Part shown: positions 1 through 37,624 of the stretch, piece after piece
Position numbering within the stretch: the first letter of the stretch is position 1
How the letters are laid out: the number at the start of each line of letters is the position of its first letter
Assembly (NCBI GenBank): GCA_024710005.1
Contig: JANJVQ010000036.1
Coordinates: forward strand, 248,001 to 312,000
DNA from: Paludibacter sp.
GTDB taxonomy: Bacteria > Bacteroidota > Bacteroidia > Bacteroidales > Paludibacteraceae
Length of the DNA stretch: 64,000 nt
Reading direction: 5' to 3'
Made by a program: the position numbers and the translations under genes
Notes under the pieces: model-generated
What the model was told of the DNA's origin: nothing
Database searches by the model: none
The model's input: only the letters and a program-made list of their open reading frames with translations

Positions 1-2
1 GT

Positions 3-392
3 TACGAAGGATTGATTCACGAAGGGGTGAACCTGAATCCGGATGGGACATATACGAAAAACACAAAGATAACGACTGATATTGTGGACTATTACAATAC
101 CGTTGTCTGGAATAGAAATAATGTGGAACAAAACACATTCAGCACCAGTTTTCTGAAAATGAAAGAATGCCGGTTGGATTACAAATTGCCTGCGACTACC
201 CTCAAAAAAATCGGATTTATTCAAAGTGCTTTCGTTGGAGTCTATGCAACCAACCTGTTTATGTTGACTGACTGGCCCCAATATGACCCCGAAGTGGCAG
301 CTTTTGGTGGCGGTTCTTTGAATAGGGGGGTGGAAACCGGTGGTTATCCGATGACACGTACCTATGGGTTTAATCTGAAAGTATCATTCTAA
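3..392 (+). CDS. SusC/RagA-family TonB-dependent receptor, C-terminal fragment
   Basis: This is the 3' end of a gene that begins before the window; the frame is open from base 3 with no stop. About 129 residues remain. They have the character of the last barrel strands of a SusC-type receptor: a run like FLKMKECRLDYKLP, then TNLFMLTDWPQYDPEV, and a final strand ending NLKVSF with a terminal Phe, as expected for outer-membrane beta-barrels. SusC proteins import oligomers across the outer membrane with TonB energy, capped by a SusD lipoprotein. The SusD gene follows within 15 bases, so the two are surely co-transcribed. The TTG at base 12 is internal and not a start. Confidence 0.9.
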   Translation, partial: YEGLIHEGVNLNPDGTYTKNTKITTDIVDYYNTVVWNRNNVEQNTFSTSFLKMKECRLDYKLPATTLKKIGFIQSAFVGVYATNLFMLTDWPQYDPEVAAFGGGSLNRGVETGGYPMTRTYGFNLKVSF

Positions 393-404
393 AAATTGAA
401 ACAA

Positions 405-1970
405 ATGAAATATCTAATTCATATTTTTCTGACACTGATTGTCGCATTTCAATTTTCATGCAGTTCAGGATTCGAAGAACTCAACGACAATCCGAATGTT
501 CCCAAATATTGGGATATTTCTCCGGTTAACCTCCTGGAGGAAACAATATTCTCAGGTGCCGACGGCATGCGCTACCGTACCTGGCTTTTTACGGGCGAAC
601 TGATACAGTACACGGTGTCTGGAACCTCAAACAATGCTTATCACAGGTATGTGATAGGTAATTCGGTGATGGCAAGTACCTGGAACAGTTTGCTGGTATG
701 GGCTGCCAATGCAGATCACATGAGACAACTGGCACGGCTGGAAGGAAAGAAGGATGTTAATACCGAAGCTATTGCGCTTACTTTGAGGACTCTGTATCTG
801 TCAAATGCAACGGACATTTTTGGTGATATTCCTTGCAGTGAAGCTTTCCGCAGTCTTCCCTACTACGATGAAGACAATAACTATGTGGAAGAAACAACCC
901 TTTTTCCGGTATTTGATAAACAGGAGGATGTCTATAAACAACTTTTTGCAACCCTTGAAAAAGCAAATAATTTATTCGATGTAAATCAATCCATTAAAAC
1001 ACCATCGAAAGATCTGATTTATGGTGGAAATATCGCTAAATGGAAGAAATTTAACAACTCGCTTTATCTGAGGTTGTTGATGAGATTAAGTAACCGTAGT
1101 AACCTGAAAATGACTGTTTCAGGTGACGGAACGCAGGAACTGACTGTGTTCGAAAAAATCAATGAAATTTTGAATGATCCGATTAAATATCCTATTTTTA
1201 CCAGTAATGCGGATAACGCAACAATTTTTTATTCGGGTATTACACCTTTTATCAATAGTTTTGGTGACCAGACTGATGGAGCATTTAACGGAAGAAATGC
1301 CGCTGAACAAATTGTAAGTATGATGGATGAGCAGAATGACCCGCGTATTTCCACTTACTTTGTTCAACGTGGTGGAGCCTGGAAAGGCGTTGCCAGTGGC
1401 GCAGGTTCTCAGGATACTGATTCGGACAATTCAGCACGACTGAACAAAAGTGTGTTGGGAGGATATACTTCACCCTATTCTTTGATGAAATATGATGAAG
1501 TGTTGTTTATTCTTTGTGAGGCAGCTAAACTCGGAGCTATTCCGGGTGGCGATGATGCGGCTTCTGCCTACTATCGCACTGCAATCACAGAATCCATAAA
1601 ATACTGGGTGAGTGTAGATCCGAATAAAGCGGGGATTACCGATGAAGCCATTACCAATTTTATTGATAATTATGCTCCCTACGACGGAAGACTGGAAAAT
1701 ATCCTGAACCAAAAATACATCGCTATGTTCTGGGTGGGTTACGAAGCCTGGCATGATTACCGTCGTACCGGTTTCCCGAAACTTAATATCGGGGTAGGAA
1801 CCTTTAACGATCACATTTTGCCTATGCGTTTCGAATATCCAATCAATACAGCTAAGACAAATCCTGCAAACTATCAGGTTGCAGTGGATAGGCTGAAGGC
1901 TGATTATGGAGGTGGAGATGATATGAGAACACCGGTTTGGTGGAGCAGGGCAGCAGCAGCAATTAAATAA
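405..1970 (+). CDS. SusD/RagB-type outer-membrane lipoprotein (SusD_2-like)
   Basis: Surface lipoprotein partner of the preceding SusC gene, expected to bind the substrate and close over the barrel. It has a short signal peptide and lipobox ending in FSC at about residue 19. The C-terminal third contains a WVGYEAWHDYRRTGFP segment, typical of the SusD-like/SusD_2 branch, and the length (about 521 residues) is normal. I chose the ATG at 405; a TTG nine bases upstream only adds MKQ to an already complete signal peptide. The ligand cannot be read from sequence. The neighbours, BACON lipoproteins and metallophosphoesterases, suggest a phosphorylated or phosphodiester substrate. Confidence 0.92.
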   Translation: MKYLIHIFLTLIVAFQFSCSSGFEELNDNPNVPKYWDISPVNLLEETIFSGADGMRYRTWLFTGELIQYTVSGTSNNAYHRYVIGNSVMASTWNSLLVWAANADHMRQLARLEGKKDVNTEAIALTLRTLYLSNATDIFGDIPCSEAFRSLPYYDEDNNYVEETTLFPVFDKQEDVYKQLFATLEKANNLFDVNQSIKTPSKDLIYGGNIAKWKKFNNSLYLRLLMRLSNRSNLKMTVSGDGTQELTVFEKINEILNDPIKYPIFTSNADNATIFYSGITPFINSFGDQTDGAFNGRNAAEQIVSMMDEQNDPRISTYFVQRGGAWKGVASGAGSQDTDSDNSARLNKSVLGGYTSPYSLMKYDEVLFILCEAAKLGAIPGGDDAASAYYRTAITESIKYWVSVDPNKAGITDEAITNFIDNYAPYDGRLENILNQKYIAMFWVGYEAWHDYRRTGFPKLNIGVGTFNDHILPMRFEYPINTAKTNPANYQVAVDRLKADYGGGDDMRTPVWWSRAAAAIK

Positions 1971-2018: not shown

Positions 2019-4151
2019 ATGAAAAATAAAATGAAAATAAATCATATTATGCAAAGAACACGAAACAGGAAAAGTGTTTTCCTTTTATTTGCAACAATCA
2101 TAGCGTGCGCATTGGTTTCTTCGTGCGATGAAGATAAACCGGATGATATCGGTGGTACTGATGTGGCCTTTGGAATAACCTATAAGAATTCGAATGGCAT
2201 TGAAATGGATTCATTGTTGCCAACCGATTATGTTTGCAGTTTTCCTCAACAGGGAGGCAGCCGGTATTTCTATGTGGAATCAAATGTGGGAAAATGGAAA
2301 TTGTCGCCGGGAGAAGGACATGAAGCCTGGGTTGAGATTTGGCCGGCAGAAGGCAAAGGTGATGGCAGGTTTGGCATCAAGGCAACTCCGAATACATCAG
2401 CTTATCCGAGAGATTACGCAATTAGCCTGTTGAATAGTGCCGGACAAGTGATGGGTAGCATACCCGTTTATCAGGATCCTGCGCCACCGAGTCTTGCAAT
2501 AAATTATTCAACAACCCCTAAATTTGTATCTTCACTGGGTGAAACATTTGTTGTTAAGGTAACTGCCAACATTGCATGGCAGGCTGCTACAAACGATAGC
2601 TGGATTACAATTGGCGAGGTGACTGATTCGACACAACAAATTATTATTGGTCAGAATCCTGCCGTACAACGCGAAGGTTCCATAACTTTCTCGATGATTG
2701 GAGTGGAGCAGTCGGTAACCATGTATATCAAACAGCTGGATTTGGCCAACGACTTCAGTAATGCAACCAAGGTAACTGTTGCCGACTTGTTGTCGCGTGT
2801 CGGGCCTTCGGGTGTTGGGACAATTGACGATAACCTGTACATCGAAGGGTATGTAATCAGCGATCGCAGTAAAAAGGCACTCGCCAGTACACAAATGGTG
2901 GTTCAGGATGAAAGTAACAAAGGCGTATGGATTGAGTTTACAAACGCTGATGACAACACCTTCAATCTGAACGAAAAGGTGAAGGTTCACATGTATGGAG
3001 CTTCATTTATTCTCGATGCTTCGTCGAAAGCCAGCAAAGTTGAATCCTTCTCGCCGTCGTTTGTACACGATGCTACCCCAACGTCAGGTGTAACTCCTAT
3101 TGAAATTACTGAACTCGTGAACCTGGCTCAATATGAAAATGCGCTGGTTACGCTCAAAGACGTAGAGTTCCCGTTGCCTTATGGTACCTATGTGAACATC
3201 ACAGAGACGTATTATAATAAGAAACCTGCTAACTGGACTGCTACAGCTGAACCATTTGCCGATGATACCGATAATTACGGACATCTGGTAAGGGATAAGA
3301 AAGGAAATACAATTAAGATGTACACTTCTCCTTCTTTCCTTGACAGGTTTAAAATAGTAATGCCTTGGGGCTCAGGCTCACTTACTGGTATTGTTATGAA
3401 ACGGGTGAAAAATAACGTAACCAGTTATTTTATCAGAATCCGGAACAATGAAGACAACAAGGTTTCAGCAGATAAGAATACGGCGCTTTCCAGAGACATC
3501 ATGCAGATGGGGCCGTGGCCAAATAATACTGTCGCATTAAGTTCTATTACGGCATATATTGGAACGGGAACACTCAAATATACTGGTAGAGTAAATCAGA
3601 ATGTGCTAACCTCCAGCAGTGCCGAAGCGTTTTATTATGTTGCTTCACAGGCCAGAATGGAGCCGTGTGATCTGAATGAGGATGGAACACCCACGATTGC
3701 GTACAATAATAATTTATCGTATTATGGTATCAATACACAGTATTGGTGGGGTAATCCTTCCTCCAGTATTTCAGGAGGTAGTTCAGGCGAAGCCTGGGTA
3801 ATTACCACCAGCACCTTGAATGCAACCGGACCGGGCGCTTTGTACCTGCAGTTCTCATCATCGAGCAGTACTTCTGGTCCTGCCCACTTTACGATTGAAT
3901 GGGCAGAAGCCGAGAATACTCCGTTCAATCAGTGGAATCATGTAGCCAACTATACGGTTTGTGATATTAATAACAGTCAGCAACTGATGCAATATGTATT
4001 CAAACTGCCGGATGCTGTGAAAGGTAAATCGAATCTTGTGATTCGACTGAGAGTTAACAGTCAGGAACGCGCGACACTCAACGGAAGTAATATTGGGACA
4101 TCCGGAACTAATCGTCTGGGCTTCATAAGAATTACCCAGCTGAAAAACTAA
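2019..4151 (+). CDS. BACON/DUF5689-domain surface lipoprotein
   Basis: A 710-residue lipoprotein with a long N-region and lipobox ALVSSC near residue 36; internal ATGs at 2031 and 2049 would give more usual signal peptides, so the start is uncertain. Two BACON-like Ig-fold modules occupy roughly residues 50-245, marked by W-x-I patterns and small-polar strands. A DUF5689-like module follows (about 255-480), recognised by YIEGYVISD, IEITELVNLAQYENALVTL and a late RIRNNEDN. The C-terminal 200 residues look like an all-beta jelly-roll module. Such proteins are surface glycan- or ligand-binding partners of SusCD systems. It sits between susD and a metallophosphoesterase with short gaps, implying one operon. 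No catalytic motif was seen. Confidence 0.8.
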   Translation: MKNKMKINHIMQRTRNRKSVFLLFATIIACALVSSCDEDKPDDIGGTDVAFGITYKNSNGIEMDSLLPTDYVCSFPQQGGSRYFYVESNVGKWKLSPGEGHEAWVEIWPAEGKGDGRFGIKATPNTSAYPRDYAISLLNSAGQVMGSIPVYQDPAPPSLAINYSTTPKFVSSLGETFVVKVTANIAWQAATNDSWITIGEVTDSTQQIIIGQNPAVQREGSITFSMIGVEQSVTMYIKQLDLANDFSNATKVTVADLLSRVGPSGVGTIDDNLYIEGYVISDRSKKALASTQMVVQDESNKGVWIEFTNADDNTFNLNEKVKVHMYGASFILDASSKASKVESFSPSFVHDATPTSGVTPIEITELVNLAQYENALVTLKDVEFPLPYGTYVNITETYYNKKPANWTATAEPFADDTDNYGHLVRDKKGNTIKMYTSPSFLDRFKIVMPWGSGSLTGIVMKRVKNNVTSYFIRIRNNEDNKVSADKNTALSRDIMQMGPWPNNTVALSSITAYIGTGTLKYTGRVNQNVLTSSSAEAFYYVASQARMEPCDLNEDGTPTIAYNNNLSYYGINTQYWWGNPSSSISGGSSGEAWVITTSTLNATGPGALYLQFSSSSSTSGPAHFTIEWAEAENTPFNQWNHVANYTVCDINNSQQLMQYVFKLPDAVKGKSNLVIRLRVNSQERATLNGSNIGTSGTNRLGFIRITQLKN

Positions 4152-4167
4152 TATTTAAATTTTTAAC

Positions 4168-6135
4168 ATGTATATTTCGCCAAATAGTCTTGTAAAATTG
4201 TTGTTAGTCATTCTTTTCACATCCATCCTGCATGGGTGTGAAAAGATTGAACCGGATCCTGACGACCCGAATAACCCCGGGCAAACAGTCTTAATTAAGG
4301 ATGTGATTATACCTTCACAGATGAGTCTGGTGAAAGGGAATTCACAGGCCATCAGTGGGAAAGGCTTTGCTGCCGGGGATGAAATAATTTTTAAAGCCGG
4401 AGATGATGAGGTTGTTGTGAACATAGTTACCTTCACGAATACCTATGCAACTTTTATTGTTCCGGAAACATTGAATAACGGGCAATATAGCATTCTTGTC
4501 CAGCGGGATACGAAACGTCAGGAGTTGGGAACAACAACCATTACGATTATCCTGAATTTTAATGTTCCCGACAAACAAGGCGCTACTATTAAAGGTGCTG
4601 TGTATTGCGGGACAAATCCGGTGCAGGGAGTTAGGGTATCGGATGGGATTACAACGACCATAACGGATGAAAATGGTTTCTACTGGCTTAATTCTGATAA
4701 ATTGCACGGCTATGTTTTTGTCTGTACGCCTTCGGGATATCAGCCCAAAACAACCAACAATGCAGTTCCCGGTTTCTGGTCGACGCTTACTGCTGTACCA
4801 ACAACTGCCGAACAACATAATTTCGAATTGATTGAAGTGCAGCAGGATAATTATGTGCTTATGATTGCAACCGACATGCATCTGGCAAACAGAGGGCCAA
4901 CATCCAACAATGATATGGGGCAGTTTAACAATGGTTTTATGGTTGAAGCCAGGCAGTTTGTTGAAAGTCAGACAGACAAGCCGGTGTATACTATTGTATT
5001 GGGGGACATGAGCTGGGATGGATACTGGTACAGCAGAAATTATGATATTTCAAATTATGTGACCACGGTTTCATCGTTTCCTGCACCCATGTACCACGTC
5101 ATGGGAAATCATGACAATGATCCGTATTATGCCAATGATTTTGATGCTGAAAAGAAATACAAAAAAGCACTTGGTCCTACCTATTATTCAATGGATATTG
5201 GTGATGTGCACTATATCTTTCTGGATAATACGATTTTCATCAACACGGGTGGCTTATTGGGAACCGTTGGGGAGAGAAATTATGAAAAGTACTTAACCAA
5301 TACACAGCTAAACTGGTTAAAAGATGATTTAGCAGCTGTGAAGGACAAGAATAAACCGGTAATCGTATCTTTCCATTGCCCAAGTACCAGTAACTATAAT
5401 TCGACCTTTACAACGCAGCTTACGTTTAACCCGTCCTACAAGGCAACTGAGTTTCACCGCTGTTTCGATGGATTCAGCAATGTACATTTCCTGAATGGTC
5501 ATACCCATAATAATGGATACACAACTATTGGTACGAATATACAGGAACACAACATCGCTGCAACATCCGAAACCTGGTGGTGGAGTGGTAAAACCAGCGG
5601 ACTGAATGTTTGTATTGATGGCTCTCCAAGCGGATACGCTGTGTTCGAGGTGAACAGTCAGGATATCAAATGGTATTATAAAGGAATCGGTCTGAGCAAA
5701 TCAAAACAGTTTCGCACTTACGACATGAATAGTGTAAAAGCATTTTTTAGTCGTAGTGATGTGCTTCCGGTCATGGAAAAATTAAGCGGAAACCGGAAAG
5801 ACGATTATGCCTCGTTGGTTAATAATTCTGTATTGATTAATATCTGGAATTATGATCCCGAATGGTCAATCGATGTGAAAGAAAACGGGACTAAACTATC
5901 AACGAAGCGGGTTTTCTTAAAAGATCCACTGCATACATTAGCGTACGATTATCCGCGTATGCGGGATAATGGTTCTGTTACAGATGGTTTTACCACCGGT
6001 AATAATCCACACATGTTTCAGGTTATTGCCGGGAGTTCAACATCAACGCTGGAGATTACGGTAACTGACAGGTTTGGTAATAACTATACCGAGACAATGA
6101 CAAGACCCAAACAATTTGTAGTTTCAATGGAATAA
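4168..6135 (+). CDS. Calcineurin-like metallophosphoesterase lipoprotein with TIG-like domain
   Basis: A 655-residue lipoprotein (lipobox SILHGC) predicted to hydrolyse phosphate mono- or diesters at the surface or in the periplasm. Order of domains: an IPT/TIG-like Ig fold (about 45-130), a carboxypeptidase-regulatory-like N-domain typical of Bacteroidota metallophosphoesterases (about 140-225), the metal-dependent catalytic domain, and a beta-rich C-terminal domain (about 500-655). The metal-binding motifs are intact: ATDMH with Asp236, LGDMSWDG, GNHDND, SFHCPS and NGHTHNNG. The TIG-like domain distinguishes it from the two other phosphoesterases downstream. It lies 16 bases after the BACON/DUF5689 gene, in the same operon. 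Substrate is not evident. Confidence 0.9.
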   Translation: MYISPNSLVKLLLVILFTSILHGCEKIEPDPDDPNNPGQTVLIKDVIIPSQMSLVKGNSQAISGKGFAAGDEIIFKAGDDEVVVNIVTFTNTYATFIVPETLNNGQYSILVQRDTKRQELGTTTITIILNFNVPDKQGATIKGAVYCGTNPVQGVRVSDGITTTITDENGFYWLNSDKLHGYVFVCTPSGYQPKTTNNAVPGFWSTLTAVPTTAEQHNFELIEVQQDNYVLMIATDMHLANRGPTSNNDMGQFNNGFMVEARQFVESQTDKPVYTIVLGDMSWDGYWYSRNYDISNYVTTVSSFPAPMYHVMGNHDNDPYYANDFDAEKKYKKALGPTYYSMDIGDVHYIFLDNTIFINTGGLLGTVGERNYEKYLTNTQLNWLKDDLAAVKDKNKPVIVSFHCPSTSNYNSTFTTQLTFNPSYKATEFHRCFDGFSNVHFLNGHTHNNGYTTIGTNIQEHNIAATSETWWWSGKTSGLNVCIDGSPSGYAVFEVNSQDIKWYYKGIGLSKSKQFRTYDMNSVKAFFSRSDVLPVMEKLSGNRKDDYASLVNNSVLINIWNYDPEWSIDVKENGTKLSTKRVFLKDPLHTLAYDYPRMRDNGSVTDGFTTGNNPHMFQVIAGSSTSTLEITVTDRFGNNYTETMTRPKQFVVSME

Positions 6136-6162: not shown

Positions 6163-7686
6163 ATGAAAAGGACATTATTTAAACGGACTACTTTCATCAT
6201 GCTGATGGCTGCATTGGGATTTTTTGCAGTTTCCTGTGTGGAAGATGAAGTGGTATTACAGCCTCAGGTAAATCTGAGCACCTCAACGCTTACGCTTAGC
6301 AGACTTGGAATGAACGAAGAAGGTAATACGGCCACAGTGGATGTTGTTTCCAATATTTACTGGACACTCAAAATTGAGCAGGAAGAAGAATGGTTGTCGG
6401 TTTCGCCTGTGGGTGGAACCGGTGAGACCACACTTTCGTTTGCAGCGCCTTTAAATGATGGAGAAACGCGCACTGCGAAAGTTATTCTGGAAACTTTCGA
6501 TGGCATGAAGAAAGAAATACAGGTAACACAGAACGACAAAGATGAGGTTATTTATTACCTGTTCGAAGATATGGGAAAAGAAGCTGTTCAACAGGTCGAT
6601 GTAAATTTCTTCGATGGGTGGACTAAAGTCGGTATTGGTAGTTTGCTTACAAAATATTCAGGAGCAAATGCAGCCTTGGTTGATAATCAGAATCCATCTG
6701 AAGGATACGCAAATGCCTCCGGGGGGAATAATATTCTGTTTTCAACATTGGAATCAGCTTACAGCTGGGGACCGGTTGGCACCAGAGATGATGAGTACTT
6801 CAACCTGAGTTTTGGTATTTATGCACCTGAAACTTTCAATGCCAATGACCTGAAACTGTATATCAGCAAAGACGGAGAAAGCTGGGTGCCGTTGAAATAT
6901 ACCAGAAGCGGCAATCAGTCAGGATGGGCTAAAGCAGAAAGCAAATATAAGGTTGCTGACCTTTCCTTTGTTTACTACAAAGTGGTTGCAAATAAAATTA
7001 ATTACCGGATTGACGATATTATTTTACTGGAGGATGCCGGGAAAACCGGAGAGGAAGTTATTTTCCAGACGGTTGTGGATGATGGAACTCCTGTTGGGTT
7101 TGAGTATTACAGCGAAGATTTCTCGTGGATAACCGTTGAGACTTTTGGTGGAACTCCGGCGAACTTCCCGACAAATGAGCTGGGTTTCACTAACTCCAAT
7201 ATTACACCTGAGCAAAGGGATACTATTAATAAATACAACTGGAGCCAGGAGCTGGGATCAACTTATTTACGTCTCGGTTTAATGAAAATCGGGAAAACCC
7301 GTGTTGGTAGTGATCTGATTTCACCTCCATTCTCTTCAATTGCTCTGTATAAATCGATAAATGTACAAATTACTTTTGATGTGGCAATGTATGCTTCAGC
7401 GGGAGGCACACCGGATTTGGACGGTATCGTGCTGGAAGTCAGAAATGGTGGGACGATAAATAGTCAAGCTCTGACCAGTTATTTCATGAATGTGGGATTG
7501 TGGATCAATGCTGGTCAGGAACTTACAGAACCTTATAAAACGGTGACAGCCACCATTTATGGAGCAACATCGCGTACACAGTTCAGAATTCGCTCAGGTA
7601 TTGAAAACTCGGAGCAAACCAGATTGAACAAATCGAACAGGTTCTTCTTTGATAACTTCAAGGTTACCAAAGCGCCAAACGAATAA
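6163..7686 (+). CDS. BACON-domain lipoprotein, probable ligand-binding protein
   Basis: A 507-residue lipoprotein with signal peptide and lipobox FFAVSC near residue 25. Residues about 35-125 form a BACON domain (VVSNIYWTLKIEQEEEWLSVSP and a closing EIQVTQND). Two jelly-roll or choice-of-anchor-like modules follow (about 130-290 and 300-507); both close with a strand of the type RIDDIILLED or FFFDNFKVTKA, the usual ending of this fold. There is no sorting domain and no catalytic signature, so a binding or display role is inferred. It is the last gene of the first SusCD operon before a hairpin-bearing gap and is only 27 bases from the phosphoesterase gene. Confidence 0.75.
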   Translation: MKRTLFKRTTFIMLMAALGFFAVSCVEDEVVLQPQVNLSTSTLTLSRLGMNEEGNTATVDVVSNIYWTLKIEQEEEWLSVSPVGGTGETTLSFAAPLNDGETRTAKVILETFDGMKKEIQVTQNDKDEVIYYLFEDMGKEAVQQVDVNFFDGWTKVGIGSLLTKYSGANAALVDNQNPSEGYANASGGNNILFSTLESAYSWGPVGTRDDEYFNLSFGIYAPETFNANDLKLYISKDGESWVPLKYTRSGNQSGWAKAESKYKVADLSFVYYKVVANKINYRIDDIILLEDAGKTGEEVIFQTVVDDGTPVGFEYYSEDFSWITVETFGGTPANFPTNELGFTNSNITPEQRDTINKYNWSQELGSTYLRLGLMKIGKTRVGSDLISPPFSSIALYKSINVQITFDVAMYASAGGTPDLDGIVLEVRNGGTINSQALTSYFMNVGLWINAGQELTEPYKTVTATIYGATSRTQFRIRSGIENSEQTRLNKSNRFFFDNFKVTKAPNE

Positions 7687-7712
7687 CATGTCAGGAAAAC
7701 AAGTGTTGGATA

Positions 7713-7785
7713 AACAGGGTTGCAGGAGGTAAATTCCTGCGACTCTGTTAAAGAATTAAGAATTAAAAATTAAAAATTAAGAATT
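7713..7785 (+). repeat. Long RNA hairpin followed by AT-rich heptamer repeat
   Basis: A stem of 15 base pairs (7713-7727 with 7735-7749, two G-U pairs, loop AAATT-rich) lies downstream of the BACON gene. It is followed by about 4.5 copies of the heptamer AATTAAR at 7754-7785. There is no T-run on the plus strand after the stem, so it is not a canonical intrinsic terminator. It may stabilise the 3' end of the upstream transcript or separate two parts of the operon. Confidence 0.6.
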
Positions 7786-7814
7786 TCTATAACCATATTT
7801 CATATTCTTTCAGG

Positions 7815-10919: not shown

Positions 10920-10986
10920 AGCTATGCCTATCAGTTGGACATATAATCAGAAAAGAGTTTCATCGAAGAAAGGGTGTTCTATAACG

Positions 10987-25552: not shown

Positions 25553-25572
25553 ACAATTTAAGATTGCTATAC

Positions 25573-30943: not shown

Positions 30944-32626
30944 ATGAAAAAAATCCAATTATCAATAAGCTTTATGCTCATAGGCGTGCTGCTAATGAAT
31001 CTGCAGGCTGTTAATTATTATGTTACGAGTACTGGTTTGGTTAGTAATGACGGACTGTCGTGGGCAACGCCGATGACGCTGAATGCTGCGCTTGCAGTGG
31101 CTCAGGATGATGACGTTATACATATTGGTGCCGGAACCTATGTCCCTGCAGACTATATAACAAGCGGAACGCTGGAAGGAGACAAAACCTTTGAAATTAA
31201 AACCAATGTGGCGCTGATTGGTGGATATCCTGCCAGTCCGGCTCCCGGTGACAACCCTTCGGATGCCAATGAAACAATCCTGAACGGAAATGAAACTTGT
31301 TACCACGTTGTAGCAGTAACAGCACCGGCAACTGAGGGTAAAAAGGTTAGCATCGACAATGTTACGATTACGGGTGGGAATGCTGCTGCATCTGGGACAG
31401 CTTTGACAATCAACAGCCTGAGCTTTGTACGTGTAAACGGAAGTGCCATGATTATCGGTGGAGCAGTGGTGGAAATTAATAATTCAAAAATCATCAATAA
31501 TAAATCGATGCTTCACACACCCGGCGTATATGGCTTCTCAGGTGCAGATTTAACGGTCAACAATTGTCTGGTACAAAATAATATCGGACAGGCTTCTTCT
31601 GGTAATGGGGCGAGCTTCTGGTTTGCGGCATCAACATTACGGGTTAATAACTCCAATATTATCGGAAATAAAAATTCCGGAGTGGGTGCGATTCAGATTA
31701 TAACCAATGCAAAAGGATATTTTTACAATACTACCATTGCCAATAATGTTGCAGGTTATAATAGTACAACCAGTTCCCGCAATGGGTCGGGAATTTATGT
31801 GCGCGATGGTTCACAGGTACAGGTGGTTAATTGTACAATCTATGGTAATGAAAGCAATGGAAACGGAGCGGGTATCGCCCTGCACACGTCAAATTTGCCA
31901 AATACCCTGGAAGTCATCAGTTCAACAATTACCGGAAATAAATCCAAATTACTGAATCCATCTACAGCAGGAATATTTGCTCTGACAGCAGGATGCACCA
32001 TCAATATCCACAACTCAATTGTTTCGGGAAACACGGCATTAGGTGCAAATAATCATGATGCTGCAGTTACTTCTACAAGTGTCCTGACGCCGAAGAACTC
32101 AACCATTGGCGAGAAGATATATGATGGCTCCGCCGTTGAGGTTGCGGATAAAACATTTACTGTAGCGACCATGCTGGGAACTTTAGCGGATAATGGAGGA
32201 ACTACACAGACCTGTAAATTGCTGCTCGATTCAGAATCTAACCCTGCATTTACATTGGGAATGAGTTCGGCTGTCTTGCAGTCACTGGGAGGATCGCTAA
32301 CTCCGGTTGTGCCCGAAAGTATCGTTATGTATGACCAGCTGGGTAATCAGCGTGCGGGTGTAGTAATGGGTGCCTGGGTTGCCAATGGTCCGTTCTCAAA
32401 CACAATAGATGTGGTTGAAAAACAATTGCCGGTAGCTTATGCAGCTCAAAACGGGATTGTGGTGAAAACGCAAGCGGGTGACAGAGTTGTTGTCTTTAAC
32501 ATGACCGGTCAACGTGTGTTTGATGTGACTGCCAGTGGAGATATTACCCGTATCGACAATAAGTTGCAAAAAGGCAATGTATATATTGTCAATGTAAATG
32601 GAAAAAATTCAAAAGTGTTGTTTTAG
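30944..32626 (+). CDS. Parallel beta-helix protein with T9SS-like C-terminus, paralogue
   Basis: A 560-residue exported beta-helix protein, tandem copy of the preceding gene with the same opening (NYYVTSTGLVSNDGLSWATP), the same helix core and the same C-terminal module (VVVFNMTGQRVFDV, NVYIVNVNGKNSKVLF). Signal peptide ends NLQA. Copies differ mainly in early rungs, which would alter the ligand-facing surface. A hairpin follows the gene. Confidence 0.82.
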   Translation: MKKIQLSISFMLIGVLLMNLQAVNYYVTSTGLVSNDGLSWATPMTLNAALAVAQDDDVIHIGAGTYVPADYITSGTLEGDKTFEIKTNVALIGGYPASPAPGDNPSDANETILNGNETCYHVVAVTAPATEGKKVSIDNVTITGGNAAASGTALTINSLSFVRVNGSAMIIGGAVVEINNSKIINNKSMLHTPGVYGFSGADLTVNNCLVQNNIGQASSGNGASFWFAASTLRVNNSNIIGNKNSGVGAIQIITNAKGYFYNTTIANNVAGYNSTTSSRNGSGIYVRDGSQVQVVNCTIYGNESNGNGAGIALHTSNLPNTLEVISSTITGNKSKLLNPSTAGIFALTAGCTINIHNSIVSGNTALGANNHDAAVTSTSVLTPKNSTIGEKIYDGSAVEVADKTFTVATMLGTLADNGGTTQTCKLLLDSESNPAFTLGMSSAVLQSLGGSLTPVVPESIVMYDQLGNQRAGVVMGAWVANGPFSNTIDVVEKQLPVAYAAQNGIVVKTQAGDRVVVFNMTGQRVFDVTASGDITRIDNKLQKGNVYIVNVNGKNSKVLF

Positions 32627-32707: not shown

Positions 32708-33565
32708 ATGAAAAAAATACTCTTATTGAATTTATTGTGTTGCTGGTTTTTCTGTCTTTCAGCTCAACAAAAGACTTTTAAAGTCATAACTTATAATATT
32801 TTTGAAGGCATGACCCTCGATACGACGGCAAACAAAGATTTGTTTGTTGATTGGGTAAAACAACAGAATCCGGATATTCTGGCCTTGCAGGAAGTTAATA
32901 AGTTTACCCAGCTTACACTGGAAACCATGGCCCGAAGATACAACCATCCCTATGCTGTGTTGTTGAAAGAAAAAGGTTTTCCTGTTGCGTTAACATCGAA
33001 ATATCCGATTGTCAACGTTCAGAAAGTGCTTGATAATATGCATCATGGATTTATCAGAGCCGACATAGCCGGATTCAATGTGCTTGTAGTACATCTTTCA
33101 CCACACAAGTACTGGAAAAGGCATGAAGAAATTGAAGTTATTCTGCAAACGGCAACAACACAAGCCAATCAGCATAAAACCATCATCATGGGAGATTTCA
33201 ATGCAATATCAATAGCTGATGGTGATTTCTATGCCAATGGAAAGATACTTGAAAAATATGTGGATATGGGAAAGAGATATGCTTACCATGACAACCTGAT
33301 CGATGGAAAACTTGATTTTGGAGTTCATGAAAAAATAGTAAATCAGGGTTATATTGATATTTTTAAACTGAAGCATCCAACCTATGATTTTACACGACCA
33401 ACACTCAAAACGGCTGATGAAGGCAGAAATGCTTCTTCCCGGATTGATTTTATATACGTGAGTAAGAAGATGAAATCCAAGGTGCTGGAATCGGCAATCA
33501 TCAAAGATGCCTTTACCAATTATTACTCTGATCATTATCCGGTGATGATGGTGTTGAAGAGGTAA
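32708..33565 (+). CDS. Endonuclease/exonuclease/phosphatase-family hydrolase, exported
   Basis: A 285-residue secreted enzyme with a short signal peptide ending LSAQ. The family core is intact: TYNIFEG (metal Asn), LALQEVN (metal Glu), HLSPH, MGDFNA (catalytic Asp/Asn) and the terminal SDHYPV His. The family cleaves phosphodiesters or phosphomonoesters in nucleic acids, sphingomyelin, inositol phosphates and similar substrates; which applies here cannot be read. Context with phosphodiester glycosidases and phosphatases supports action on the same polymer or on released head groups. Confidence 0.88.
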   Translation: MKKILLLNLLCCWFFCLSAQQKTFKVITYNIFEGMTLDTTANKDLFVDWVKQQNPDILALQEVNKFTQLTLETMARRYNHPYAVLLKEKGFPVALTSKYPIVNVQKVLDNMHHGFIRADIAGFNVLVVHLSPHKYWKRHEEIEVILQTATTQANQHKTIIMGDFNAISIADGDFYANGKILEKYVDMGKRYAYHDNLIDGKLDFGVHEKIVNQGYIDIFKLKHPTYDFTRPTLKTADEGRNASSRIDFIYVSKKMKSKVLESAIIKDAFTNYYSDHYPVMMVLKR

Positions 33566-33601: not shown

Positions 33602-35254
33602 ATGAGAATTCTTTTTTCGGTATTAATTTCTGCTATTGTGCTGCTGACACAGGCACAGTCATACGAGCACCTGATTATATATGGTCAGAGCTTGTCAACG
33701 GGTCACCAGTCCTGGCCACCCTTGTCAACTACGCCGGTACCCGGTAATTATATGATAGGTACCCAGGTGTGGTCCAATTTCGGCAATACGGTGTTGAACC
33801 AATTGAATCCGCTGCTTGCGAATGTAGCATCTTCGACTGCATCATTGGCAAAAAACAGGGCAAACATGATATACGCCGAATCGCCGGTTGTTGCAGCTGC
33901 CAATCACATTCAGCTAAAAACCAACGGTCAGCATCAGTTTATTGCAACTTCCTGTGGTACCGGTGGAAAAACGATTGAAGAACTTTCGAAGGAACATTAT
34001 AATCCTGTTTGCTATAGTCATTTCAGCAATGCCATTCAGTATGCCTCCTCAATATCAAACAGCCTCCATTGTCCGGCCATCATCTGGATGCAGGGGGAAT
34101 ACAACTATACTGTTCCTTCTGGCAATAGTGGTCTGACCTCTGGCAGCAGACCGGCTTCGGATAAAGCGACCTATAAATCGCTGATGTTGACGTTGAAGGA
34201 AAACATGCAGGCCGACATCATGAAGAAATACAACCAGACGGATGCTCCATTGTTTATTACCTATCAGGCCGGGGTGCAATACACCCGTGGTACTTATCTG
34301 ACGGTTGGAATGGCGCAGTTGGAGGCCTCGAACGAACAGGAAGACATCGTGTGTGCCGGCCCGGTTTACCCGATGACCGACAGAGGCGGACATCTTGATT
34401 CGAATGGATATCGCTGGTTTGGTGAAATGCTGGGCAAGGTTTACTATCGCACCAAAATACTTGGTGAAGATTTCAAACCACTGCAACCGGCAGAGTTATC
34501 CAGAACATCTAATCCTAAGGAAATTAAGATCAGGTTCTTAGTCCCCAAGTTGCCGCTTGTGATTGACGAACAACTGGTAAACAAAGTAACCAGCGCCGGT
34601 TTTGAATTATACCTCAACGGAGCTAAAAAAATAATTACAGGGGTGAGAGTTGAAGGCGATTGCGTCATTTTGACTGCACTGACTGACTTAACGGGAGATG
34701 TAGAAATTATCTATGCCGGAACGAACAATGCCGGTCATGGAAATTTACGTGACAGCGATGATTATCCAGCCTATTACAATTATATTGATCTGGATAAAAG
34801 AAATCCGGATAACAGTTATTTTTACCCGAGAGATGCTGCAGAAACCACCCTTCGTCCGTCGTATGAGCCACGCGATGGAACAGGGATTATGTATGAGAAA
34901 CCTTACCCCTTGTATAATTTCAGTGTGGCATTTTATTATAAACTCAATGCAAGTGCACAAACCATGCTTGTGCCGGGGCTGGAGAATTATACTGCTGTCC
35001 AAAATATCCGGAGAAATGATGTGTTTAAACCCGGTTACAGAAATGGAATGCTGTTTATTCCGGCATCAGAAAAAGCTTATAACCGTATCAGTATAACCGC
35101 TTTGTCGGGTCAAACGATATTTGTGCTGGATGAACCGCGATTAATCCGGGGTGAGAATAAATACTATGTTTTACCTGATTTGTCAAAAGGCATCTATTTA
35201 GTAAATATTCAATCGGAGAATAATCAATTTATATCGAAAATATTAGTTAAATGA
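33602..35254 (+). CDS. Sialate O-acetylesterase-like SGNH hydrolase with T9SS domain
   Basis: A 550-residue secreted esterase. Signal peptide ends LTQAQ. The catalytic module (about 20-290) has the nucleophile block IIYGQSLSTG, SCGTGGKTI, WMQGEYN and GHLDSNGYRWFG, arranged as in the sialate O-acetylesterase/carbohydrate acetylesterase branch of SGNH hydrolases. A beta-rich module occupies about 295-480. The C-terminal 70 residues (ISITALSGQTIFVL, LSKGIYLVNIQ) form a T9SS sorting domain. Likely removes O-acetyl or other acyl substituents from a glycan, clearing it for the other enzymes. Confidence 0.8.
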   Translation: MRILFSVLISAIVLLTQAQSYEHLIIYGQSLSTGHQSWPPLSTTPVPGNYMIGTQVWSNFGNTVLNQLNPLLANVASSTASLAKNRANMIYAESPVVAAANHIQLKTNGQHQFIATSCGTGGKTIEELSKEHYNPVCYSHFSNAIQYASSISNSLHCPAIIWMQGEYNYTVPSGNSGLTSGSRPASDKATYKSLMLTLKENMQADIMKKYNQTDAPLFITYQAGVQYTRGTYLTVGMAQLEASNEQEDIVCAGPVYPMTDRGGHLDSNGYRWFGEMLGKVYYRTKILGEDFKPLQPAELSRTSNPKEIKIRFLVPKLPLVIDEQLVNKVTSAGFELYLNGAKKIITGVRVEGDCVILTALTDLTGDVEIIYAGTNNAGHGNLRDSDDYPAYYNYIDLDKRNPDNSYFYPRDAAETTLRPSYEPRDGTGIMYEKPYPLYNFSVAFYYKLNASAQTMLVPGLENYTAVQNIRRNDVFKPGYRNGMLFIPASEKAYNRISITALSGQTIFVLDEPRLIRGENKYYVLPDLSKGIYLVNIQSENNQFISKILVK

Positions 35255-35346
35255 AATGATATCAACCGGCATTTTATCGGAGATATAATTTAGAACTTAG
35301 TCTGAACATAATCAAGAACACAATAATCCATTAAAAAGTGAATAAT

Positions 35347-36204
35347 ATGAAGAAAATAATTATTTCATTGTCTGCGTTTTTCTTATGCTGTTTATTTGTA
35401 GGTGCACAGACACCCGCAGATTCAGCAGTAGTGGTTGATTTTAAATGGACAGAAATGTCATTGGGTAAAGGTATTGTGAATAAACAGGGTTCAATTCCCA
35501 ATTTGTATGGAGGTACGCAGAACGTGAACATTATGGTAATTGATCTGAAATCAGCTAATTACAAAGTCGGGGTGGTTTTTCCTGACACCTGTAATATAAC
35601 CAGCGAAATGGCAAAGTCGAGCAATGCAATTGCCGCCATCAATGGCTCGTACTATGATGAGGAAACATTCGAATCAACTTGCTACTACCGGGTTGATGGA
35701 AAAACGGTTTCTTATACAACAGATAATGAATTTCGTCGTGTGAATGGTGCATTGCGTATAAAAAAAGGGAAAGTTGACATTATTCCATGGAGCAAAGAAA
35801 TTGAAAAATCATACAATGAAAAAAAAGGAATTGTGCTGTCGTCAGGTCCAATGATGGTGTATGATAACAAAGTAAGTGATTTTTCCTGGTTGACCTATCC
35901 TCGTTTTACAGATGTAAAACATCCGCGCAGCGCCATGGCGATTGCTAAAGATAATAAGTTATGGCTTATTACGGTGGACGGGCGGTTCAAAGGGAAAGCA
36001 GACGGGATGACTATTCCGGAATTGGCCCACATGCTGAAAGTGTTAGGTTGCAAAAAAGCATTGAACCTGGATGGAGGAAGATCTACCACACTTTGGTCAA
36101 ATGCAGCTCCGGAAAATGGTGTGTTGAATAAACCTGCTGCCAATAAGATTTTTGACTCATATGGCGAGCGGTATAATTGTAATACGATAATCATTTACAA
36201 GTAA
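35347..36204 (+). CDS. Phosphodiester glycosidase (NAGPA-like), stand-alone secreted form
   Basis: A 285-residue secreted protein with signal peptide ending FVGAQ and one phosphodiester glycosidase domain (about 45-285). Motifs seen: AAINGSYYD, HPRSAMAI, ITVDGRF, NLDGGRSTTLW and TIIIYK. It is more divergent than the two other family members here: the usual DGGGSTT is DGGRSTT, ending the Gly triplet with Arg, and NADFF is NGSYYD. It may differ in substrate. I used ATG 35347; a GTG at 35338 is an alternative. Confidence 0.85.
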   Translation: MKKIIISLSAFFLCCLFVGAQTPADSAVVVDFKWTEMSLGKGIVNKQGSIPNLYGGTQNVNIMVIDLKSANYKVGVVFPDTCNITSEMAKSSNAIAAINGSYYDEETFESTCYYRVDGKTVSYTTDNEFRRVNGALRIKKGKVDIIPWSKEIEKSYNEKKGIVLSSGPMMVYDNKVSDFSWLTYPRFTDVKHPRSAMAIAKDNKLWLITVDGRFKGKADGMTIPELAHMLKVLGCKKALNLDGGRSTTLWSNAAPENGVLNKPAANKIFDSYGERYNCNTIIIYK

Positions 36205-36253
36205 CACGAACGGCATTTGAAAGGATTCTGAATATATAATAAATTTTAAAGGT

Positions 36254-37624
36254 ATGAAACGCGTAATAATCCTGATTTGCGTACTGATTTCGATGCAATA
36301 CGCTTTCGCTCAAAAAACATTTAACCCGATGGGTCAGGCCCGGCATGTGGTGTGGGGGCAAGGATTCGGGCAGAATAGTTTCTTAAGATTCCCGGCTGAT
36401 GCCCAACAAACCATTCCGTCGGATGTATGGAACCAGACCCAACGCTCCAGTGGTTTACATGTTCGTTTTATAACAAATTCTGCTAATATTACGGTCAATT
36501 ATACCTTGTCATCGCAATATAGCAGCAACAACTGGTTCAGTTCGGTGGGAGCAAATGGTTTAGACTTATATGCCCGCAAGCCCGACGGGAAATGGTATTG
36601 GTGTCATCCCGGATCCCGGACAATTGGAAGTCAGTTTAAGTACAGCAGTATCAATCCTGATGATGCGACTTATGCTTCCGATGGATATGAATATGTACTT
36701 TATTTCCCGACTTTTGCCATTACTTCGTCAATATCTGTCACAGTCGATTCGGATGCACAATTTGAATTTCTTACGGTTACCAACGAAAAGAAACCCATCG
36801 TGGTGTACGGAACTTCCATTGTGCACGGTGCAGTTTGCTCCCGTCCCGGAAATACGTGGACAAGTATCGTTGGCCGGAATTTCCCGGATTACCCGGTTGT
36901 GAATCTTGGTTTCAGTGGTGTTGGCAGGATGGAACCTGAGGTTATAGAGGTAATAAACCGGATTGATGCATCGATATATATTCTCGACTGTCTGCCTAAT
37001 TTTTCCAATACGACTATGCCTCCACTGATTGACGGCAGGTACAAAAGTGCAATCGACACGCTGACTAAGTATCATCCGGATGCGGCAATTGTATTAACGG
37101 AACATGTCGGGTATGCCGATATGGAGATGTGGAAAGCCAGAAAGGATTTGGTGATGGCGGATAATGTCGAACTGAAAAAGGTGTATGATTATTTTATGCA
37201 GAAAGGGTATACAAATCTGTATTATCTTTCACGCAGCGACTTGGGTCTGGATATGTCGGCAGATATTGGTGATTATGTACATCCGAATGACAAAGGGATG
37301 TACCGCTACGCGGAAGTCTATACGGCAAAGATTACGGAAATCCTCCATGATCAGGAATCTGCTGTTAAAAAGATAAATGCAGCATCCCTGCGTGTCAAAC
37401 CCAATCCTAATAAGGGTAGTTTCTCTGTAACAATACCTGATTCTTTTCGCCAGTCTGGCAGGCTGGAAATCTTTAATATGGAAGGAAAAAGCGTTTATTC
37501 TGAATTAATAAACCCGCAAACAGATATACTTCATATTGAAAATCCGAGTTTAAGTGCAGGTAATTACTTGTTGGTGCTAAACAACAAAAAAGAAAGGGTT
37601 ACCGGAGATTTGGTTGTTCGTTGA
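36254..37624 (+). CDS. SGNH/GDSL hydrolase with GxDLY N-domain and T9SS domain
   Basis: A 456-residue secreted esterase. Signal peptide ends AFAQ. The N-terminal beta domain (about 25-170) carries the GLDLY hallmark of the GxDLY family that precedes this GDSL type. The catalytic domain (about 175-370) has YGTSIVHG (Ser), NLGFSGVGRMEPE, and DYVHPNDKG with the Asp/His pair. The last 75 residues (RVKPNPNKGSFSVTI, LSAGNYLLVLNNK) are a T9SS type A sorting domain. Likely deacylates glycans. It is the last plus-strand gene before a bidirectional terminator. Confidence 0.85.
   Translation: MKRVIILICVLISMQYAFAQKTFNPMGQARHVVWGQGFGQNSFLRFPADAQQTIPSDVWNQTQRSSGLHVRFITNSANITVNYTLSSQYSSNNWFSSVGANGLDLYARKPDGKWYWCHPGSRTIGSQFKYSSINPDDATYASDGYEYVLYFPTFAITSSISVTVDSDAQFEFLTVTNEKKPIVVYGTSIVHGAVCSRPGNTWTSIVGRNFPDYPVVNLGFSGVGRMEPEVIEVINRIDASIYILDCLPNFSNTTMPPLIDGRYKSAIDTLTKYHPDAAIVLTEHVGYADMEMWKARKDLVMADNVELKKVYDYFMQKGYTNLYYLSRSDLGLDMSADIGDYVHPNDKGMYRYAEVYTAKITEILHDQESAVKKINAASLRVKPNPNKGSFSVTIPDSFRQSGRLEIFNMEGKSVYSELINPQTDILHIENPSLSAGNYLLVLNNKKERVTGDLVVR

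What the first reader, a model, noticed from the sequence alone, without database searches (positions are those of the whole stretch)
1..37624. Candidate phosphodiester-polymer utilization locus around two SusCD systems
Seen directly: three metallophosphoesterases, three phosphodiester glycosidase domains, an alkaline phosphatase, an endonuclease/exonuclease/phosphatase-fold enzyme and a glycerol-3-phosphate dehydrogenase lie in one 37 kb run with two SusC/SusD pairs, an ECF sigma/FecR pair and two secreted SGNH or sialate-esterase-like enzymes. No classical glycoside hydrolase or lyase signature was recognised in this run. Known: NAGPA-family enzymes split sugar-1-phosphodiesters, and alkaline phosphatases remove the phosphate then exposed. 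Inference: the locus degrades a polymer joined or decorated by phosphodiesters, such as teichoic-acid-like glycerol phosphate polymers, phosphomannan, GPI-type or inositol-phosphate glycans, or phospholipid head groups. An alternative is a general phosphate-scavenging set that also attacks extracellular DNA.
Basis: partly seen in the sequence, partly recalled or inferred. Interest (0 to 1): 0.82.

Follow-up and report, generated by a model that had tools for sequence, protein, structure and literature searches.

The report
Two adjacent phosphodiester-polymer uptake loci
A fermenting bacterium carries two neighbouring gene sets that appear to capture, cut and import phosphate-linked surface polymers, possibly the teichoic acids of other bacteria's cell walls, and one of the sets is of a type that recurs in scattered Bacteroidota.

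Summary
The gene content reported for 1-37624 is real, but it is two same-strand systems, the first cut by the window edge. Unit A (from 7.0 kb upstream to 15939) reads GlpD-GlpT-GDPD-SusC-SusD-DUF5689-MPE-BACON-MPE-MPE-GlpD-LTD. It holds both GlpD, the one GDPD, the one GlpT above cut-off and all three MetallophosC proteins found in the genome. Its core recurs in two other Bacteroidales genomes and on a Hymenobacter plasmid. Unit B (16157-37624) is an ECF/FecR-SusC-SusD-NAGPA locus of a recurrent though uncommon type: all 18 loci found by NAGPA sequence have SusD directly upstream; 0 of 29 ordinary SusD relatives have NAGPA beside them. NAGPA, SusC and SusD distances co-vary (rho 0.88-0.90). 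Best reading: unit A imports and catabolises sn-glycerol-3-phosphodiesters; unit B cleaves sugar-1-phosphodiesters of a glycan. Wall teichoic acid fits both (chemistry from PMC7086022) but is unproven; lipid head groups and phosphate scavenging stay open.

The parts
3..392 (+). Unit A: C-terminus of SusC_A (whole gene is L008:11021-14392, upstream of the window; preceded there by GlpD 6979-8553, GlpT 8565-9905, GDPD 10019-10951; window base 1 is L008 base 14001)
   Evidence: TIGR04056 611 bits; GlpT TIGR00712 722 bits vs cut-off 632.55
396..1970 (+). Unit A: SusD_A (SusD-like_2)
   Evidence: PF12771 6.6e-89
2019..4151 (+). Unit A: BACON + DUF5689 protein, presumed surface binding lipoprotein
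   Evidence: N-terminus with Cys-Asp-Glu-Asp read by eye (the script's lipobox pattern was loose)
4168..6135 (+). Unit A: MPE1, calcineurin-like phosphoesterase (MetallophosN-Metallophos-MetallophosC), probable lipoprotein
   Evidence: GNHD and GHTH invariant in the four-row alignment..LHGCEK read by eye, not flagged by the script
6163..7686 (+). Unit A: BACON lipoprotein, presumed surface binding protein
7815..10919 (+). Unit A: MPE2, calcineurin-like phosphoesterase with type IX secretion tail
   Evidence: PF18962
10879..12432 (+). Unit A: MPE3, calcineurin-like phosphoesterase, 66% identical to MPE2; true start probably near 10987
   Evidence: weak model (pLDDT 61) closest to GpdQ glycerophosphodiesterase 2dxl, E 1.7e-6
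12546..14117 (+). Unit A: GlpD-type sn-glycerol-3-phosphate dehydrogenase
   Evidence: PF01266, PF16901; best NCBIfam models are glycerol-3-phosphate dehydrogenase/oxidase, below cut-off
14155..15939 (+). Unit A end: Calx-beta/lamin-tail-domain protein with type IX secretion tail
   Evidence: not found at this place in the close relative L102
16157..16723 (+). Unit B: ECF sigma factor
16788..17819 (+). Unit B: FecR anti-sigma factor
18087..21446 (+). Unit B: SusC_B with STN signalling domain
   Evidence: PF07660; TIGR04056 859 bits
21467..22738 (+). Unit B: SusD_B
22763..23686 (+). Unit B: NAGPA_B1 phosphodiester glycosidase family protein, predicted lipoprotein
   Evidence: PF09992 2.7e-37; full-length match to 3OHG 3.1e-28, weak matches to solved NAGPA enzymes; lipobox
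23703..25502 (+). Unit B: BACON + beta-helix lipoprotein, presumed surface glycan-binding protein
25564..26973 (+). Unit B: PhoA-family alkaline phosphatase
   Evidence: PF00245 1e-65; 3a52 6.9e-45
26986..29187 (+). Unit B: beta-helix fused to a second NAGPA domain (64% identical to NAGPA_B1)
29226..30911 (+). Unit B: secreted beta-helix protein
   Evidence: AF2 pLDDT 81, PL9-like fold; no invariant Asp/Glu/Lys in the helix core
30944..32626 (+). Unit B: secreted beta-helix protein, paralogue
32708..33565 (+). Unit B: secreted endonuclease/exonuclease/phosphatase-fold enzyme, exonuclease III-like
33602..35254 (+). Unit B: SASA-domain esterase-like protein with type IX secretion tail
35338..36204 (+). 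Unit B: NAGPA_B3, third phosphodiester glycosidase family protein
   Evidence: PF09992 8.9e-34; 49% identical to the B. finegoldii copy
36254..37624 (+). Unit B: GxDLY + SGNH esterase with type IX secretion tail

Best explanation
Two adjacent outer-membrane nutrient systems for phosphodiester-linked polymers. Unit A: secreted and surface calcineurin-like phosphodiesterases cut a glycerol-phosphate polymer or glycerophosphodiester; SusCD imports the pieces; periplasmic GDPD frees sn-glycerol-3-phosphate; GlpT carries it inward; GlpD oxidises it to DHAP. Unit B: SusC_B, signalling through FecR/ECF, induces a locus in which the lipoprotein NAGPA_B1 and two secreted NAGPA domains cleave sugar-1-phosphodiesters, alkaline phosphatase removes the exposed phosphate, and SGNH/SASA esterases strip acyl groups. 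Shown: gene content, order, genome-wide concentration, conservation. Inferred: every enzymatic step, localisation, regulation and the substrate. Most likely common substrate: bacterial wall teichoic acid-type glycopolymers, whose glycerol type is sn-glycerol-3-phosphate and whose linker GlcNAc is joined by a phosphodiester to C6 of MurNAc.
For: Unit A holds the 2 GlpD, 1 GDPD, 1 above-cut-off GlpT and 3 MetallophosC proteins found in the genome. Recurrence: GlpD-GlpT-MPE1-SusC-SusD-MPE2-BACON (L121) and ECF-FecR-SusC-SusD-DUF5689-MPE1-BACON (L120); SusC-SusD-MPE-GDPD on a Hymenobacter plasmid, ranked first by both MPE3 and SusD_A. MPE3 model nearest GpdQ. Unit B: SusD directly upstream of NAGPA in 18 of 18 and 15 of 20 (3 shared records) against 0 of 29 control SusD loci with 1.5 kb flanks and 0 of 20 control stretches of 18-20 kb; rho 0.88-0.90, 0 of 2000 permutations as high. 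Further phosphodiester enzymes in NAGPA loci: NPP type; GDPD 3, EEP 3, further NAGPA 4 among 47 accessory proteins. MPE and NAGPA share a SusCD neighbourhood elsewhere: 2 of 9 MPE-found stretches of the family (L131, L134; weak NAGPA hits, 38 bits) and B. finegoldii L270. Chemistry: WTA of B. subtilis is sn-Gro-3-P, GlpQ (exo) and PhoD (endo) degrade it, and a glycosidic phosphodiester bond joins its linker to MurNAc C6 (PMC7086022, abstract and passages). GH20 in 4 of 47 accessory proteins suits HexNAc.
Against: No growth, expression or enzyme data. Units A and B were seen side by side only here and in a close relative (L102), so a shared substrate is weakly supported. Phospholipid head groups are also sn-glycero-3-phosphodiesters (recalled). 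No muramidase or amidase family was hit in either unit; the one NamZ next to a NAGPA-like gene (L160) sits beside a copy lacking the NLDGGGS motif. NAGPA of this type is uncommon: 18 of 395 phylum genomes match at 1e-25, only 3 of them over most of the profile, and among 200 family genomes only the own genome has full-length matches. In 5 of 20 stretches NAGPA has no SusD directly upstream. A GDPD also lies beside 1 of 20 control SusCDs. The EEP protein is nearest to exonuclease III. The MPE3 model is weak (pLDDT 61) and the MPE sequence profile matches purple acid phosphatases rather than GpdQ.
Confidence: 0.5

Rival explanations
1. Phosphate-scavenging systems like the PUS loci of Flavobacterium: SusCD plus phosphatases and phosphodiesterases, induced by low phosphate, taking any organic phosphorus.
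For: PUS I and II pair SusCD with PDEs or a PME instead of CAZymes, and PUS III/IV hold polygalacturonase-like lipoproteins (PMC8115612 section 16); the window has SusCD, AlkP, PDE-type enzymes and beta-helix proteins.
Against: Unit B has its own ECF/FecR and an STN-bearing SusC, an arrangement present in 17 of 18 related loci (the 18th is cut off; in L107 and L108 the ECF gene is on the other strand), which points to substrate sensing. Unit A carries carbon-catabolic GlpT and two GlpD genes. GH20 and SGNH genes accompany NAGPA elsewhere.
Confidence: 0.2
2. Use of glycerophospholipid head groups and GPI/phosphoinositol-type glycans: deacylated phospholipids go to unit A, phosphoglycans to unit B.
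For: GDPD and GpdQ-like enzymes act on glycerophosphodiesters from lipids (recalled; GpdQ match); GPI-type glycans carry phosphodiesters (recalled); NPP and EEP enzymes occur near NAGPA.
Against: Apart from the GDSL/SGNH esterase no lipase or phospholipase family was hit in the run; small head groups would not obviously need three secreted MPEs and surface binding lipoproteins.
Confidence: 0.2
3. Extracellular DNA or nucleotide use.
For: EEP protein closest to exonuclease III; LTD and DUF5689 domains often accompany nucleases (recalled).
Against: GDPD, GlpT, GlpD and NAGPA have no known role in DNA use (recalled); no nucleoside transporter or 5'-nucleotidase family hit in units A/B.
Confidence: 0.05
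4. NAGPA-family members here are not phosphodiester glycosidases but cleave or remodel another glycosidic bond, and the associated phosphatases are incidental.
For: The closest solved relative, 3OHG, is named only a DUF2233 protein; NAGPA loci also hold GH20, GH3 or GH43/PL8 genes.
Against: The R-T, DG and NLDGGGS positions are shared with solved NAGPA enzymes; phosphodiester enzymes recur beside it.
Confidence: 0.12

Closest known systems
PUS loci (phosphate utilisation systems, PusCD) of Flavobacterium johnsoniae (PMC8115612)
   Same: SusCD pair beside phosphodiesterases or a phosphatase, no classical CAZymes; polygalacturonase-like lipoproteins in PUS III/IV (section 16 read).
   Different: No NAGPA, GlpT/GlpD or ECF/FecR is mentioned for PUS in section 16 or the passages read (figures not held); PUS are defined by low-phosphate induction, untested here.
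Bacillus subtilis wall teichoic acid turnover (GlpQ exo + PhoD calcineurin-like endo; PMC7086022 abstract and passages, PMC11188070 passages)
   Same: A GDPD-family enzyme and calcineurin-like phosphodiesterases acting toward sn-glycerol-3-phosphate.
   Different: There the cell degrades its own wall; here a Gram-negative with SusCD import. The MPEs are MetallophosN/C type; no PhoD family hit.
3OHG DUF2233 protein (recalled as B. ovatus BACOVA_00430)
   Same: Full-length homologue of NAGPA_B1; its near-identical B. finegoldii copy (E 1e-190) lies in an ECF-FecR-SusC-SusD-NAGPA-BACON-NAGPA locus.
   Different: That locus adds two GH3 genes, DUF6528 and a calcineurin-PQQ fusion, and its SusC/SusD score only 312 and 27 bits against those of the window's genome.
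Lysosomal uncovering enzyme NAGPA (solved as 6pki, 6pkg, 6pku, 6pky)
   Same: Same domain family; R-T, DG and NLDGGGS positions align.
   Different: Only weak sequence matches, E 1.7e-5 to 6.3e-5; acts on GlcNAc-1-P-6-mannose of lysosomal enzymes (recalled).
Classical polysaccharide utilisation loci
   Same: SusCD, ECF/FecR, lipoproteins, secreted enzymes in one run.
   Different: No Pfam GH/PL in the run; phosphodiester enzymes take their place.

Membership tests
Polysaccharide utilisation locus (unit B) | Tandem SusC-SusD | tested here: met
Polysaccharide utilisation locus (unit B) | Linked regulator (ECF/FecR, HTCS or SusR) | tested here: met
   present in 17 of 18 related loci, the 18th cut off
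Polysaccharide utilisation locus (unit B) | Linked glycoside hydrolase or polysaccharide lyase | tested here: inconclusive
   None by Pfam in the window; beta-helix fold like PL9 with no invariant acidic or Lys residue in the core; GH20 or GH3 in some relatives
PUS (phosphate utilisation system) | SusCD next to phosphatases/phosphodiesterases | tested here: met
PUS (phosphate utilisation system) | Induced by phosphate depletion | not testable with these tools
   no expression data; PHO-box scan not run
NAGPA (PF09992) phosphodiester glycosidase | Domain above curated cut-off | tested here: met
   129, 118.9 and 117.6 bits against 25
NAGPA (PF09992) phosphodiester glycosidase | NLDGGGS and DG signature shared with solved NAGPA | tested here: met
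   NAGPA_B1 and the fused domain; NAGPA_B3 reads NLDGGRS
NAGPA (PF09992) phosphodiester glycosidase | Activity on sugar-1-phosphodiesters | not testable with these tools
   needs assay
Glycerophosphodiester / glycerol-3-phosphate pathway (unit A) | GDPD domain | tested here: met
   PF03009 8.7e-29; NCBIfam equivalogs below cut-off
Glycerophosphodiester / glycerol-3-phosphate pathway (unit A) | GlpT transporter | tested here: met
   TIGR00712 722 bits vs 632.55; NF008433 728 vs 748, just below
Glycerophosphodiester / glycerol-3-phosphate pathway (unit A) | GlpD equivalog score | tested here: inconclusive
   Both copies hit GlpD model NF008899 but under cut-off (281.8 and 241.1 vs 360)
Teichoic acid degradation system | Endo and exo GroP phosphodiesterases | tested here: inconclusive
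   GDPD plus three MPEs present; substrate untested; MPEs are not PhoD family by Pfam

The most novel reading that the evidence does not exclude
A Gram-negative teichoic-acid utilisation locus: unit A eats the sn-glycerol-3-phosphate chain of other bacteria's wall teichoic acid while unit B's NAGPA enzymes unhook or clean the GlcNAc-1-phosphate linker from peptidoglycan. SusCD-NAGPA loci, seen here in Paludibacter, Proteiniphilum, Maribellus, Bacteroides, Pedobacter, Olivibacter, Rufibacter, Echinicola and Sinomicrobium records among others, would then be a phylum-wide though scattered system for feeding on phosphoglycopolymers of bacterial walls.
Probability: 0.28. Interest if true: 0.85.

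Novelty: new variant of a known kind. Interest (0 to 1): 0.62.

Why it matters
Bacteroidota are known for SusCD loci built on glycosidases and lyases. A recurrent locus type whose hallmark enzyme is a phosphodiester glycosidase, beside another that feeds a glycerol-3-phosphate pathway, points to phosphate-linked polymers as a nutrient class. The solved protein 3OHG gains a genomic setting, and the substrate question becomes directly testable with B. subtilis wall teichoic acid. No paper describing a SusCD-NAGPA locus appeared among the listings of ten searches of the held open-access library; several listings were capped (for example 15 of 427) and most subscription papers are not held.

Tried and rejected
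DNA use as the main function: set aside because glp and NAGPA genes do not fit. One single 37 kb locus: rejected because each unit was seen without the other within the flanks fetched. Beta-helix proteins as proven lyases: rejected; the six Foldseek matches at E<=0.001 have TM 0.23-0.39 to the query, and no Asp, Glu or Lys is invariant or nearly so between residues 147 and 331 of the first row of ten; PL9 catalytic residues were not mapped. NAGPA-NamZ adjacency (L160) as proof of a peptidoglycan target: rejected because that copy lacks the NLDGGGS motif. GDPD enrichment near NAGPA: not claimed; GDPD in 3 of 47 accessory proteins of NAGPA loci, and one GDPD beside 1 of 20 control loci (DUF4996 in 1 of 31 control proteins). 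The 31 control proteins come from 11 of the 20 control loci, the other 9 having no same-strand run of qualifying genes, and one search lists only 25 of 75 families, so the absence of NAGPA, EEP, AlkP and MPE in controls rests on phmmer with reference proteins of the window's own genome, which favours close relatives. A family search around G257 found only that genome, 1 of 181. Counterexamples: one search took 20 of the 35 places listed; in L241-L245 no SusD lies directly upstream of NAGPA (one gene between in L243 and L245; L244 shows no SusCD hit). The MPE family also occurs beside a carboxypeptidase-regulatory-like protein without an adjacent SusD (Parabacteroides) and, among nine MPE-found family stretches, one has no SusD hit (L132). 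NAGPA hits outside Bacteroidota (Metabacillus, Pseudobutyrivibrio) gave no informative neighbours. A second structure library was not available.

Many of the 31, and of the 18, are close relatives (for example 3 Echinicola, 3 Sinomicrobium, 2 Rufibacter, 2 Proteiniphilum).


Full report
WHERE IT IS. The window is G000:C25:248001-312000 of a 3.24 Mb, 36-contig genome. A Paludibacter sp. reactor MAG (L102) carries a 96% identical NAGPA protein in the same order, so the organism is Paludibacter-like (Bacteroidales, recalled).

CHECK OF THE OBSERVATION. Extra facts: the first SusC is almost wholly upstream; before it come a GDPD, GlpT and a second GlpD, starting 7.0 kb upstream of the window (L008). 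The MFS protein passes the glpT equivalog model (722 bits, cut-off 632.55) and falls just short of another (728 vs 748). Four proteins or domains form a paralogous beta-helix family, one of them fused to NAGPA. GC is 42.7%.

UNIT A. Order: GlpD-GlpT-GDPD-SusC-SusD_A-DUF5689/BACON-MPE1-BACON-MPE2(T9SS)-MPE3-GlpD-LTD(T9SS), all on one strand. Searches of the own genome found 3 MetallophosC proteins, 2 DAO_C-type GlpD, 1 GDPD and 2 hits to glpT at E<=1e-20, 1 over cut-off. All lie in unit A except the weaker glpT hit, which lies at the second NAGPA locus below. GDPD and the MPEs have hydrophobic, secretion-type N-termini and GlpD does not (a simple script, not a trained predictor; it missed some probable lipoproteins). 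AlphaFold2 on MPE3 with four sequences was weak (pLDDT 61), yet its three best PDB matches are all the GpdQ glycerophosphodiesterase (2dxl E 1.7e-6). The sequence profile of the three MPEs matches purple acid phosphatases instead.

UNIT A ELSEWHERE. SusD_A relatives occur in 128 of 393 order-level genomes at E<=1e-20. For the nine nearest non-own genomes (L120-L125, L135-L137, up to 20 kb each), an MPE-family or calcineurin-like protein lies within three genes of SusD_A in five (L120-L124). In L125 and L136 the adjacent protein has an HxH..TDH signature that I recall as PHP-like (no family search). L135 and L137 show neither. L121 keeps GlpD-GlpT-MPE1-SusC-SusD-MPE2-BACON; L120 keeps ECF-FecR-SusC-SusD-DUF5689-MPE1-BACON. 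In the plasmid collection the record ranked first for MPE3 and for SusD_A is the same, Hymenobacter radiodurans NZ_CP037921, where SusC, SusD, calcineurin phosphoesterase and GDPD are consecutive; Hymenobacter sp. HDW8 holds a near copy in which SusD is annotated only in part, so the two count as one.

MPE IN THE FAMILY. MPE2 relatives occur in 32 of 200 family genomes at E<=1e-20. Nine MPE-found stretches were opened (L126-L134): 8 hold a SusD hit, 2 hold EEP hits (L126, L128), and 2 hold a weak NAGPA hit of 38 bits (L131, L134). None of the nine shows the full unit A order.

UNIT B. Order: ECF-FecR-SusC(STN)-SusD-NAGPA_B1-BACON/beta-helix-AlkP-beta-helix/NAGPA-beta-helix-beta-helix-EEP-SASA-NAGPA_B3-SGNH, with gaps of 12 to 83 bases from SusC on (coordinates). 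The 7 NAGPA domains found in the genome are 3 here, 1 about 84 kb downstream (L009), 1 in L010 and 2 in L011. L009 reads MFS-ECF-FecR-SusC-SusD-NAGPA-NHL-NHL-GH20/SGNH-EEP, a sister locus.

LINKAGE TEST. One scan of genome contigs with a three-sequence NAGPA alignment gave 18 loci. In all 18 the gene directly upstream of NAGPA is SusD and SusC precedes it; ECF and FecR are present in 17, the last being cut off, and in two (L107, L108) the ECF gene is on the other strand. Several of the 18 are congeners. Control: among SusD_B relatives in 395 phylum-level genomes, the 29 loci opened (nearest non-own genomes, 28-35% identity, 1.5 kb flanks) contain no NAGPA hit, and 20 of them opened at 18-20 kb contain no NAGPA, EEP, AlkP or MPE hit and one GDPD hit. 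In the family of G588 25 of 181 genomes have such NAGPA proteins; of 20 stretches fetched, 15 have SusD directly upstream, 3 of these 15 being records already among the 18. For 31 selected loci, NAGPA distances correlate with SusD (rho 0.896) and SusC (0.879) distances; none of 2000 permutations reached this, maximum 0.41. Shared ancestry of the genomes contributes to such correlations. The slot after NAGPA is a beta-helix protein (11), an NHL propeller (14), nothing (4) or other (2); these labels need 4 changes on the NAGPA tree against 14.2 in shuffles, so two stable subtypes exist.

HOW COMMON. In 200 family genomes, 21 match NAGPA_B1 at 1e-10, but outside the own genome the matches cover only its C-terminal part, mostly inside longer proteins. 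In 395 phylum genomes, 18 match at 1e-25 and only 3 (own, G257, G588) over most of the profile. The type is scattered and uncommon outside the family of G588.

ACCESSORY GENES. Among 47 accessory proteins from 16 external NAGPA loci, Pfam finds a further NAGPA in 4, GH20 in 4, GxDLY/SGNH in 4, GDPD in 3 and EEP in 3; an NPP-type phosphodiesterase is in L106. One genome (L234/L239) has both NAGPA subtypes in tandem, with two GDPD, one EEP, two GH20/SGNH hits and an alkaline phosphatase relative.

BACTEROIDES. B. finegoldii TSDC17.2-1.1 records hold an ECF-FecR-SusC-SusD-NAGPA-BACON-NAGPA-DUF6528-GH3-GH3-PQQ locus (L270). Its second NAGPA matches 3OHG at 1e-190. The PQQ protein carries a stretch like the MPE N-terminal domain and a calcineurin-like stretch with GNHD, so phosphoesterase and NAGPA meet again in one locus. 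A second record (L269) has FecR, a frame that matches SusD_B and NAGPA_B1 in one protein, BACON, NAGPA_B3 (49% identical) and a short alkaline phosphatase: the window's gene set in an apparently eroded state.

MECHANISM. From PMC7086022 (abstract and passages): in B. [quoted passage not shown] GlpQ is exolytic and stops at substituted units; PhoD is endolytic; the linker ManNAc-GlcNAc is joined to C6 of MurNAc by a glycosidic phosphodiester. [quoted passage not shown] Unit A supplies a GDPD plus calcineurin-type enzymes and the downstream route for sn-G3P. Unit B supplies an enzyme whose lysosomal relative cleaves GlcNAc-1-P-6-hexose (recalled), the same bond type as the WTA linker. That match is an argument, not a test.

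ALTERNATIVES. PUS loci (PMC8115612, passages and section 16) are the nearest described systems. The STN/FecR/ECF chain and the GlpT/GlpD genes argue for substrate-driven carbon use, but no regulon evidence was obtained. Lipid head groups remain a serious rival for unit A.

VERDICT. Novelty: new variant of a known kind.

Noticed in passing
L009 (G000:C25:360000-379000): Second NAGPA-SusCD locus in the same genome, about 84 kb downstream, next to the genome's only other glpT-model hit at 1e-20 (below cut-off), with NHL propellers, GH20/SGNH and EEP.
   Followed up: yes
window 37670-38521: DUF4886 protein on the opposite strand just after unit B; DUF4886 relatives also lie near NAGPA genes in L241 and L244.
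   Followed up: partly
window 44853-58298: NrtR-like regulator followed by a separate GH3-SusC-SusD-DUF5016-GH30-GH30 locus, an ordinary glycan utilisation locus.
   Followed up: no
L269 (Bacteroides finegoldii NZ_OY725947): Apparently eroded relative of unit B: one frame matches both SusD_B and NAGPA_B1, and the alkaline phosphatase is short.
   Followed up: partly
L160 (G588:C1:282001-301900): NAGPA-like protein without the NLDGGGS motif next to a NamZ exo-N-acetylmuramidase gene, between two SusC/SusD pairs.
   Followed up: partly
window 7815-12432: MPE2 and MPE3 are a tandem duplication (66% identical); the listed start of MPE3 overlaps the end of MPE2 and the true start is probably near 10987.
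   Followed up: partly
L010 and L011: Larger NAGPA proteins of about 750-860 aa near PL8, GH43 and EEP genes (L010) or GH9/deacetylase and GHL10 genes (L011), a different NAGPA context in the same genome.
   Followed up: no
L274 (Hymenobacter radiodurans plasmid NZ_CP037921): Minimal unit A (SusC-SusD-MPE-GDPD) on a plasmid, two small genes away from a recombinase gene, suggesting mobility.
   Followed up: partly
L128 (G114:C70:30001-49900): Same-genus stretch with SusC/SusD hits, MPE, three EEP hits, a relative of the L009 sugar-phosphate-type MFS transporter and a SASA/beta-helix protein side by side: a third mix of the same parts.
   Followed up: no
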